This document shows positions 1 through 2,831 of a DNA stretch of 64,000 bases, one piece after another. Source of the DNA: Acidimicrobiia bacterium (lineage in GTDB: Bacteria; Actinomycetota; Acidimicrobiia; Spongiisociales; ZC4RG35); the NCBI GenBank assembly GCA_028285585.1, contig JANQOU010000013.1, forward strand, positions 1-64,000, given 5' to 3'. The notes under the pieces were generated by a model. It was not told where the DNA came from. It made no database searches and saw only the letters and a list, made by a program, of their open reading frames with translations. Made by a program: the position numbers and the translations under genes. The first letter of the stretch is position 1, and every line of letters starts with the position of its first letter.

Positions 1-1758
1 CGACTCAAGGGACTCTTCTCGGAAGCCGGCTGGCATGTTGCCGAAGCCAAGTACGGCCGACGGCTTGCTGCTGCCTTCGCTCAGCCCGGAGGCGACGCTC
101 TTCGTGCCCACATCGACGCTATGCCCAACGAGGCCTACCAGGCACTCTTCGGACTCAGCGGCCCAGACCTGCGCAAGAAGTTCCTCGACGGCGCCGACTC
201 GGCCGTCGCGGCGCTCACCGAGAGTTACGACGACGAGACACTCGCCACCACCGTCACCGACCTTGGCGGCCATGACATCGACGTTCTCCTCGAGTCCTTC
301 CGGGAATGCGATGCTGCAACCGGGCAACCATCTGTGCTCTTTGCCTACACCGTCAAGGGTTGGGGGCTGCCGATCGCCGGCGACGCGTTGAACCACGCCG
401 CCCTCCTCAGCACAACGCAGATCGACGAGCTCCGCAACGGCGTCGGCTTAGAACTCGCCTCGGAATGGGACAGGTTCGGCCCAGATACGTCCGCCGGACA
501 GGTCTGCGAGTCGGTCGGCGGCGACATAAACAATCCGCGGCCAACCCCAAGACCGCGCTACGCCGTACCGAAGTCGGCGCGGCCTCCGGCCGGCACCGGC
601 ACCGTGTCCACCCAAGAAGCGTTCGGCAGAGTGCTGTCCAGCCTCGCCGATGTCGAAGAGATCGGCGAGCGCATCGTGACCACAGCCCCTGACGTCTCAA
701 TCTCGACGAACCTTGGAGGTTGGATAAACAAGAAGGGGGTCTACTCCCACTCCGAGCGCGACGACCACGGCGGTGCCGAGCGACTGCTGAAGTGGGCGCC
801 AAGTCCCTCCGGCCAACACATCGAGCTCGGCATCAGCGAGATGAACTTGTTCATGCTGCTCGGTCAACTCGGCCTGAGCCAAGACCACCACAGCGAACAG
901 CTCATCCCAATCGGCACCGTTTACGACCCCTTCGTGCTACGCGGCCTCGATGCGTTCATCTACGGCATCTACAACGACTCACGCTTCATCGTCACCGGTA
1001 CGCCATCCGGGGTCACGTTGGCCCCCGAGGGCGGAGCTCACCAATCAACTATCACCGCATCCGTTGGAACCGAGATCCCCGACCTGCACTACGCAGAACC
1101 CGCATACGGCACCGAAGTGGACTGGTTGCTCTGCGACGCCATCGACCAGATCAGCCACCCCGACGGTATGAGCACCTATCTCCGGCTCTCCACACGACCG
1201 ATTGATCAGGCCCCATTTGGCGCCGCGCTCGAACGCATCGGCGAGGAGGCTCTCCGGCGGCTTGTCCTTGCCGGTGGGTACCGCCTCGTCGAGCCCGAGC
1301 TCGACAACCGCCCCGCTGTCACTCTGGTGACCACTGGTGCCATGGCACCCGAAGCACTCGAGGCAGCTACGGAACTGGACATCGAAGGCGTATCGGCAAC
1401 CGTCATCCATCTCACCAGCCCCGACCGCGTCTACCGGTCATGGCGCAACACATACACGGCGACCATTCAAGGGCACCGGGTTCGCCAGCCCAGCCACATC
1501 CACCGCCTGGTCCCGCACGCGGAGAGACTCAACCCAGTCGTCAGCGTCCAAGATGCCGCCAGCCACAGCCTCGCCTGGATCGGGTCTGCGCTCGGCACCC
1601 GTCAATATGCCCTTGGCGTCGACCGATTCGGCGAGTCGGGCACAATTGCAGACCTCCACGACGCGACGGGCATCTCCGCCGGCAACCTTGTCAACGCCGC
1701 ACTCATCGCCATCAGCGACCACGAGCCCGACGACGTCGACTCGGCCGTACGCTCCTGA
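1..1758 (+). CDS. Pyruvate dehydrogenase E1-like protein, homodimeric type (partial, 5' end missing)
   Basis: The reading frame is open from the first base of the window, so the N-terminus is cut off; 585 residues remain. The remaining part corresponds to the middle and C-terminal halves of the homodimeric 2-oxoacid dehydrogenase E1 family (AceE and the related MdeB group), ThDP enzymes that decarboxylate pyruvate or another 2-oxoacid and pass the acyl group to a lipoyl E2. Visible family landmarks are a helix rich in EAKYG near the start, a VKGWGLP segment, an ELGISEMN segment where AceE has its INELG motif, and a GGAHQS segment. The fragment does not settle whether the substrate is pyruvate or 2-oxobutyrate. 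No E2 or E3 gene adjoins it on this side; a separate heterotetrameric E1/E2 operon lies at 35.9-39.1 kb. The next gene starts 93 bases downstream on the same strand. Confidence 0.8.
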   Translation, partial: RLKGLFSEAGWHVAEAKYGRRLAAAFAQPGGDALRAHIDAMPNEAYQALFGLSGPDLRKKFLDGADSAVAALTESYDDETLATTVTDLGGHDIDVLLESFRECDAATGQPSVLFAYTVKGWGLPIAGDALNHAALLSTTQIDELRNGVGLELASEWDRFGPDTSAGQVCESVGGDINNPRPTPRPRYAVPKSARPPAGTGTVSTQEAFGRVLSSLADVEEIGERIVTTAPDVSISTNLGGWINKKGVYSHSERDDHGGAERLLKWAPSPSGQHIELGISEMNLFMLLGQLGLSQDHHSEQLIPIGTVYDPFVLRGLDAFIYGIYNDSRFIVTGTPSGVTLAPEGGAHQSTITASVGTEIPDLHYAEPAYGTEVDWLLCDAIDQISHPDGMSTYLRLSTRPIDQAPFGAALERIGEEALRRLVLAGGYRLVEPELDNRPAVTLVTTGAMAPEALEAATELDIEGVSATVIHLTSPDRVYRSWRNTYTATIQGHRVRQPSHIHRLVPHAERLNPVVSVQDAASHSLAWIGSALGTRQYALGVDRFGESGTIADLHDATGISAGNLVNAALIAISDHEPDDVDSAVRS

Positions 1759-1850: not shown

Positions 1851-2831
1851 ATGGGTGAGTCAATAAGAGAATTCTTGGATTCGTTCTTCTACGGGTCGCG
1901 CAACGACCTGTCTTTCAAGTTTCTGAAAGGGATGAGCGAGGAAGAAGCGAGCGAGTTCCTATCGCTGCTACTGACCAAGGTCGGTGAGCTCTACGACGGT
2001 GCACCGCCAGACGACCTGATCGACCTCGCGTACCAATGGCAGGTCGACGCCTACACGCCCAAACCTGGAGCTGAACGCAAGTGGGTCCACGAAGACGGGC
2101 CTTTCACTCCCCTTTCGAAACCACTCGCAGAGATGAGCGTGGGCCTGGTCACCTCCTCGGGCCACTTCACCAGCGAAGACCCACCTGGCGACGGCCGAGC
2201 GACCAAGAGCCAGGAAGAGATCGTGAAGGAGATCGACGATTTCTTGGCTCGCACCCCCGAGCTGAGCGAGATCCCAACCTCACACCCAACGGAAGAGTTG
2301 AACGTGCGCCATCCGGGTTACGACACCCGGTCGTCGGCCCTTGACCCCGAGGTAGCACTTCCCATCAGAGCTTTGGAACGGGCTGCGTCCCGTGGCTCGA
2401 TCGGATCTGTCTCATCCCCTGCCTACTCCTTCGTCGGTGCAGCCTCACAGCTGAGGCTGAGAGCGGACAGGGACGGATGGGTTGACCGATGGAAAGAGGC
2501 CGGCGTAGAAGCCCTCTTCTTGGTCCCCGTCTGACCGGTGTGCCATGTGTCGGTCGGACACATCGCCAGGAACGCAGAGAGCAAAGGCATTCCCACCGTC
2601 GCCGTGATGGCCCGGTCGTTCGGTCACGTTGCCTCGGAGATGAAGTACGCCCGAGCGGTGATCACTCGTCACCCGATGGGCCGACCGATGGGCCCGCCAG
2701 GAGACCGCGCCACCCATGACCGAGTAGTCGACGCAGCCCTCGACCTGCTGGCATCCGCAACAAGTGGGACGACCATCGTCGAGCTGCCCGAGCCCTACCG
2801 CCCGCTCAACGAGGCGACCCAGCGGTCCTGA
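1851..2831 (+). CDS. Probable selenoprotein of the GrdB/PrdB-like reductase B family, read through in-frame UGA
   Basis: Two open segments (1851-2531 and 2535-2831) share one frame and are separated only by a single TGA at 2532-2534. Read through, they give one 326-residue protein with selenocysteine at residue 228 in the motif VPV-U-PVCH, a UxxC redox motif. The first segment resembles the glycine/sarcosine/betaine reductase selenoprotein B family (a GLVTSSGHF segment, then YDTRS). The second continues as an ordinary alpha/beta domain (GHIARNAESKGIPTVAV), so it is not random sequence. A 7-bp hairpin with loop GGUCG begins 10 bases after the TGA and fits a bacterial SECIS. Assigning it to the PrdB/GrdB-like family rests on remembered family features; the substrate is unknown. 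selA, selB, selC and selD are not in this window. The start is the ATG at 1851; the ribosome site is weak. Confidence 0.75.
2545..2563 (+). promoter_or_regulatory. Putative bacterial SECIS hairpin
   Basis: The stem is ATGTGTC (2545-2551) and GACACAT (2557-2563), a perfect 7 bp, with apical loop GGTCG (2552-2556). The stem begins 10 bases after the in-frame TGA (2532-2534), and the first loop G is 18 bases after it. The E. coli fdhF SECIS has the same GGUC in its apical loop and similar spacing. Two more pairs (2542-2543 with 2565-2566) extend the stem below a C-C mismatch. The hairpin lies inside codons, as bacterial SECIS elements do. Confidence 0.7.

What the first reader, a model, noticed from the sequence alone, without database searches (positions are those of the whole stretch)
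1851..2831. Probable selenoprotein: one frame read through UGA, with a SECIS-like hairpin
Directly seen: two open segments in one frame, separated by a single TGA; both halves look like structured protein; the join gives VPV-U-PVCH, a UxxC redox motif; a perfect 7-bp stem with a GGUCG loop starts 10 bases after the TGA. Known: bacterial SECIS elements sit just behind the UGA and the E. coli fdhF loop contains GGUC. Inference: a GrdB/PrdB-like reductase using selenocysteine. A plain annotation would show a truncated gene plus a small orphan.
Basis: partly seen in the sequence, partly recalled or inferred. Interest (0 to 1): 0.82.

Follow-up and report, generated by a model that had tools for sequence, protein, structure and literature searches.

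The report
GrdB/PrdB-related selenoprotein gene, UGA read-through
This bacterial gene uses its internal UGA "stop" codon to insert selenocysteine into a redox enzyme related to the amino-acid reductases GrdB and PrdB; the kind of protein is already known, but this branch is poorly covered by annotation models and its chemical job is unknown.

Summary
Window 1851-2831 (+) is one 326-codon frame interrupted only by TGA at 2532-2534, with a 7-bp hairpin (loop GGUCG) starting 10 nt after it. The genome has tRNA-Sec (UCA), adjacent selA and selB, and a selD that itself carries an in-frame UGA. Homologues keep TGA in this column: of 113 loci read, 110 are TGA, 2 Cys (TGC), 1 unreadable. The hairpin covaries (19 two-sided changes against 5.3 expected, 0 of 500 shuffles as high). 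The part behind the TGA is at least as conserved as the part before it. Selenocysteine insertion is very well supported, though only by comparative genomics.

The protein belongs to the GrdB/PrdB-related superfamily, and its Sec aligns with that of a GrdB found beside GrdE. It is not a proven glycine or D-proline reductase: it scores 76.5 bits against a PrdB cut-off of 300, has UxxC rather than UxxCxxC, and the GrdE/PrdA-type partner was not found in its genome. PrdB-like UxxC selenoproteins have been known from marine metagenomes since 2005. This is a new member of a known kind, in a branch with an N-terminal helical extension found in Acidimicrobiia, Chloroflexota, Desulfobacterota and others. 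Its substrate is unknown.

The parts
1851..2831 (+). Full-length selenoprotein gene, 326 residues with Sec at 228, ending at TGA 2829-2831
1851..2102 (+). N-terminal helical extension (about residues 1-84: helices 5-10, 20-27, 30-47, 54-68) shared by the close branch; no Pfam match on its own
2103..2531 (+). First part of the GrdB/PrdB-related region; contains the VRHPGYD motif (residues 152-158)
2532..2534 (+). In-frame UGA, selenocysteine codon 228
2541..2543 (+). TGC codon for Cys231, second residue of the UxxC motif, invariant in the close branch
2545..2563 (+). bSECIS-like hairpin: 7-bp stem 2545-2551/2557-2563, loop GGUCG 2552-2556
2535..2831 (+). Part of the gene behind the UGA (98 codons plus stop), would be lost in plain annotation

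Best explanation
The gene encodes a selenoprotein. During translation, UGA at 2532 is decoded as selenocysteine by Sec-tRNA(UCA) and SelB, which is recruited by the hairpin at 2545-2563; SelA makes the Sec-tRNA and SelD supplies selenophosphate. The product is a 326-residue, probably cytosolic enzyme: a helical N-terminal extension followed by a Rossmann-like domain of the GrdB/PrdB superfamily. Sec228 sits between a beta strand and the N-terminus of the next helix and forms a UxxC redox centre with Cys231. Shown: the frame, the machinery, conservation of the UGA, coding constraint on both sides, and covariation of the hairpin. Inferred: SelB binding, actual Sec insertion, and that the selenolate attacks an electrophilic substrate with Cys231 resolving the selenenyl-sulfide (a two-electron reduction). 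The substrate is not known. It is unlikely to be glycine or D-proline, because the known partner subunits were not found.
For: Machinery in the same 2.59-Mb genome: tRNA-Sec 71.8 bits, anticodon TCA; SelB 346.6 bits directly behind SelA 412.4 bits on C4; SelD 373.5 bits with one in-frame TGA in its active-site motif. Conservation: 29 of 60 relatives have a homologue, and all 29 carry one TGA in the best match. Of 113 loci read, 110 have TGA at the homologous column, 2 TGC, 1 unreadable (some loci are the same gene fetched twice, giving 100 distinct sequences). The genome-contig scan used two patterns, one of which back-translates Sec as Cys and so favoured Cys forms, yet it found almost only TGA. 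Downstream identity is 53-68% against 41-57% upstream, with dN below dS on both sides. Hairpin: 97.4% of cells paired, 19 cells with two-sided changes against 5.3 in shuffles (0/500), and slid controls far lower. His codon CAU/CAC tracks Ile/Val further on, so a silent base follows its pairing partner. In the phylum sample, 56 of 59 genomes with a TGA form have selA, against 127 of 237 of the rest (Fisher p = 2e-10); the 3 exceptions are only 75-82% complete. Model pLDDT 91.5 overall, high on both sides of the Sec. Sec aligns with the Sec of GrdB: hhalign probability 98.9, E 1.5e-17.
Against: No protein-level evidence. A single-sequence fold of the hairpin is not more stable than shuffles. Part of the hairpin covariation could ride on amino-acid changes and on relatedness of the sequences. 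No partner gene is conserved across the branch, so the substrate is a guess.
Confidence: 0.95

Rival explanations
1. It is a true D-proline reductase PrdB or a GrdB-type subunit acting with its usual partners.
For: PF07355 GRDB 24.7 bits (cut-off 22) and best NCBIfam match PrdB 2e-21; Sec aligns with the Sec of GrdB.
Against: 76.5 bits against a PrdB cut-off of 300. GrdE/PrdA-type family PF09338 gives nothing in this genome but rings at E 9e-207 and 7e-118 in two genomes reached through relatives. GrdA not found, without a positive control. The GrdB motif is UGTCTRC, here UPVCHVS. It has an N-terminal extension of its own.
Confidence: 0.04
2. A pseudogene or a sequencing error: the TGA is a real nonsense mutation or a misread Cys codon.
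For: TGA differs from the Cys codon TGC by one base; a plain reading gives two ORFs.
Against: The same TGA in independent genomes of several phyla; constraint behind the TGA; covarying hairpin.
Confidence: 0.01
3. UGA is read as another amino acid (a changed genetic code) or by unspecific read-through.
For: The frame stays open under any reading of UGA as a residue.
Against: The same gene and the gene upstream end at TGA, the genome has a complete Sec system, and rare homologues have Cys, not Trp or Gly, here.
Confidence: 0.01
4. The UGA works as a regulated stop: a 227-residue form is also a product, with Sec insertion depending on selenium supply. This adds to, and does not replace, the best explanation.
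For: Competition between Sec insertion and termination at UGA is general knowledge for selenoprotein genes (from memory, not tested here).
Against: The truncated form would lack Sec, Cys231 and the last third of the conserved fold; nothing here shows that it has a function.
Confidence: 0.1

Closest known systems
PrdB-like UxxC selenoprotein family of marine metagenomes (Sargasso Sea, PMC1088965; GOS, PMC2398784)
   Same: Sec in a UxxC motif, pfam07355 relation, bacterial SECIS behind the UGA, Cys forms known, mostly uncultured aquatic bacteria
   Different: Those sequences were not compared here, so whether this branch with its N-terminal extension was among them is not known
D-proline reductase PrdB (TIGR04483)
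   Same: Best NCBIfam match, residues 85-317 to profile 20-235 of 238
   Different: Far under the equivalog cut-off; extra N-terminal part; no PF09338 (GrdE/PrdA-type) partner found in the genome
Glycine/sarcosine/betaine reductase selenoprotein B, GrdB/GrdF/GrdH (PF07355, TIGR01917, TIGR01918)
   Same: Homologous C-terminal half, H-GYD motif and Sec column shared
   Different: UxxC instead of UxxCxxC, lacks the N-terminal half of GrdB, partners not found
UGSC family (PF24696, NF041046)
   Same: UxxC-type Sec motif (PMC2398784); weak match over the region behind the UGA (E 0.014)
   Different: Far under cut-off (15.4 against 125 bits); different motif

Membership tests
Bacterial selenoprotein | In-frame UGA at a column held by Sec or Cys in homologues | tested here: met
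   110 TGA, 2 TGC of 113 loci
Bacterial selenoprotein | selA, selB, selC, selD in the genome | tested here: met
Bacterial selenoprotein | SECIS hairpin just behind the UGA with G in a small apical loop | tested here: met
   feature described in PMC1088965; SelB binding itself not testable
Bacterial selenoprotein | Sec found in the protein | not testable with these tools
   needs mass spectrometry or 75Se label
GrdB/PrdB superfamily (PF07355) | Match above the Pfam gathering score | tested here: met
   24.7 bits, cut-off 22; only over the last 80 model positions, and the model ends just before the UGA
D-proline reductase PrdB (TIGR04483) | Match above the equivalog cut-off | tested here: not met
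   76.5 against 300 bits
Glycine reductase family selenoprotein B (TIGR01918 subfamily) | Match above the subfamily cut-off | tested here: not met
   32.7 against 65.45 bits
GrdB | UxxCxxC motif | tested here: not met
   UPVCHVS here, UGTCTRC in GrdB beside GrdE; motif described in PMC13188914
Glycine/D-proline reductase complexes | GrdE/PrdA-type subunit (PF09338) in the genome | tested here: not met
   no match in G000 (96.85% complete); the search rings in two other genomes
Glycine reductase complex | GrdA (PF04723) in the genome | tested here: inconclusive
   no match, but no positive control rang
GrdB/PrdB enzymes | Reductive cleavage activity on an amino acid | not testable with these tools
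   needs an enzyme assay

The most novel reading that the evidence does not exclude
The branch with the N-terminal extension is a separate, almost always selenium-dependent enzyme with a new substrate, possibly in arsenic or other metalloid/methyl chemistry (an arsenite methyltransferase gene lies directly upstream in 3 loci and one gene away in a fourth), not an amino-acid reductase.
Probability: 0.3. Interest if true: 0.5.

Novelty: new member of a known kind. Interest (0 to 1): 0.3.

Why it matters
The gene falls below the specific NCBIfam cut-offs and would be split by a plain ORF caller, so a widespread selenium-dependent enzyme of uncultured Acidimicrobiia, Chloroflexota and Desulfobacterota can go unnoticed. 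The scale of conservation (54 distinct UGA/hairpin sequences) makes it a clean case for correcting annotation and for asking what the GrdB/PrdB fold does where its known partner subunits are missing.

Tried and rejected
Viral contigs gave no relative. PDB sequence search with the alignment gave nothing significant. Foldseek against PDB gave no match at E <= 0.001, and the second look gave best Z 7.9, within the range the tool calls a common arrangement: Rossmann-like neighbours only, no functional hint. A conserved gene neighbourhood was sought: apart from pieces of the gene itself (either strand), no neighbour is shared by more than 5 of 55 loci. Rejected: pseudogene or sequencing error, reassigned UGA, true PrdB/GrdB (see rivals). 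No Rfam family matches the hairpin; the window's only Rfam hits are three tRNAs. No paper in the library holds 'Acidimicrobi' together with selenoprotein and selenocysteine.

Full report
WHAT IS THERE. Window 1851-2831 (+) is a single frame from ATG 1851 to TGA 2829, open but for one TGA at 2532-2534. Table 11 shows it as a 227-aa ORF and a 97-aa ORF starting at GTG 2538. A perfect 7-bp stem (2545-2551 with 2557-2563) closing a GGUCG loop begins 10 nt after the TGA. Such hairpins follow 1.6% of TGA triplets in the window; among 49 TGAs with at least 90 open codons on either side, this is the only one with both UxxC and the hairpin. On energy alone the hairpin is ordinary (z = -0.46).

THE GENOME CAN INSERT SELENOCYSTEINE. 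G000 (2.59 Mb, 96.85% complete) holds tRNA-Sec with anticodon TCA on C13 (71.8 bits, gathering 47), selA and selB side by side on C4 (412 and 347 bits, both over cut-off) and selD on C14 (373.5 bits). SelD carries its own in-frame TGA, in ...GAG-U-GCKLGP..., a second UGA that must be read through.

HOMOLOGUES RUN THROUGH THE UGA. In 60 relatives, 29 genomes have a match, and the best match of every one contains one TGA. In 296 genomes of the phylum, 67 match, of which 59 have a TGA form; 56 of these 59 have selA, against 127 of the other 237 (Fisher p = 2e-10), and the three exceptions are 75-82% complete. A scan of named genomes gave 54 loci in Acidimicrobiia and other Actinomycetota, Chloroflexota, Desulfobacterota/Deltaproteobacteria, SAR324, Spirochaetes and Acidobacteria. 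Over 113 loci the homologous codon is TGA in 110, TGC in 2 (L073, L133), and unreadable in 1 (L129). These are not all independent: several loci are the same gene fetched by two tools, and the set collapses to 100 distinct sequences. Constraint continues behind the TGA: downstream identity 53-68% against 41-57% upstream, dN below dS on both sides (dS is close to saturation upstream).

THE HAIRPIN IS SELECTED AS RNA. In 54 distinct, gap-free sequences of the close branch, 97.4% of pair cells are standard pairs. Two-sided changes occur in 19 cells (5.3 expected from shuffles, 0/500 as high) and sliding the partner by 1-3 columns destroys the signal. At pair 15/31 the silent third base of a His codon follows whether Ile or Val is encoded later; at 16/30 Val-to-Met is matched by a silent change in another His codon. 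Shuffles ignore relatedness, so this is support, not a probability. Loop sequence goes with lineage: GGUCG in the Actinomycetota members and one Spirochaetia locus, CGUGG or CGUCG in most others.

WHAT THE PROTEIN IS. Pfam GRDB matches above its gathering score (24.7 against 22), over model positions 265-344 of 347. That Pfam model stops just before the Sec column: in a GrdB it covers residues 4-349 with Sec at 350. The best NCBIfam match is PrdB (2e-21) but at 76.5 bits against a cut-off of 300. A GrdB lying beside a GrdE-type gene aligns with the Sec residues in one column (hhalign probability 98.9, E 1.5e-17) and shares the H-GYD motif. Differences: GrdB has UGTCTRC, this protein UPVCHVS; it has an N-terminal helical extension (about residues 1-84) with no Pfam match; the partner family PF09338 is absent from G000 while the same search finds it in two other genomes. 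The AlphaFold model is confident (pLDDT 91.5, pTM 0.91): Sec228 lies between strand 221-225 and helix 229-244. No solved relative was found by sequence or Foldseek; the second look shows generic Rossmann-like folds at Z under 8.

FUNCTION. Shown: a conserved UxxC centre in a confident predicted fold. Inferred: a selenol-dependent two-electron reductase. No neighbour is conserved over the branch. In L084, L086 and L090 an arsenite methyltransferase gene (NF008823, above cut-off) lies 27-103 bp upstream on the same strand, and in L122 one gene away. This is a lead, not evidence for the window's own gene, whose upstream neighbour is a pyruvate-dehydrogenase-E1-like gene.

WHAT IS KNOWN. PrdB-like UxxC selenoproteins are among the most abundant selenoprotein families of the Sargasso Sea (42 sequences, PMC1088965) and GOS (235 selenoproteins, 110 Cys homologues, pfam07355, PMC2398784). 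The finding is therefore a new member of a known kind. Whether this branch has been described separately could not be settled: no paper in the library joins Acidimicrobi with selenoprotein and selenocysteine, but the library is not complete.

Noticed in passing
L084:3107-3940, L086:1771-2571, L090:446-1249, L122:1981-2745: Arsenite methyltransferase (NF008823, above cut-off) directly upstream of the selenoprotein gene in three Actinomycetota loci and one gene away in L122; in L084 and L122 a second methyltransferase with an Rv2258c-like HTH domain is next to it.
   Followed up: partly
window 2552-2556 and homologous loops: Apical loop of the hairpin is GGUCG in Actinomycetota members (and L127, Spirochaetia) but CGUGG/CGUCG in most Chloroflexota and Desulfobacterota members; other branches of the family within the same order use CGUGG too.
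   Followed up: partly
L019 (G000:C14:80024-80953, minus strand): SelD of this genome is itself a selenoprotein gene with in-frame TGA in the active-site motif.
   Followed up: partly
Pfam PF07355 (GRDB), seen on L134:172-1476: The Pfam model of GrdB ends just before the Sec residue, apparently because it was built on sequences cut at the UGA; the C-terminal third is not modelled.
   Followed up: no
L048 (G053): A more distant relative has the motif STUGTGTRCGATLA, GrdB-like but with Gly in place of the first Cys.
   Followed up: no
window 1-1758: Upstream gene on the same strand is an incomplete pyruvate-dehydrogenase-E1-like protein (aceE model 106 bits, cut-off 860); similar genes lie near the selenoprotein in L089 and L097.
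   Followed up: partly
L105:3133-3906: Neighbour matches the Rcas_1661 family thioredoxin-like (seleno)lipoprotein, under its cut-off.
   Followed up: no
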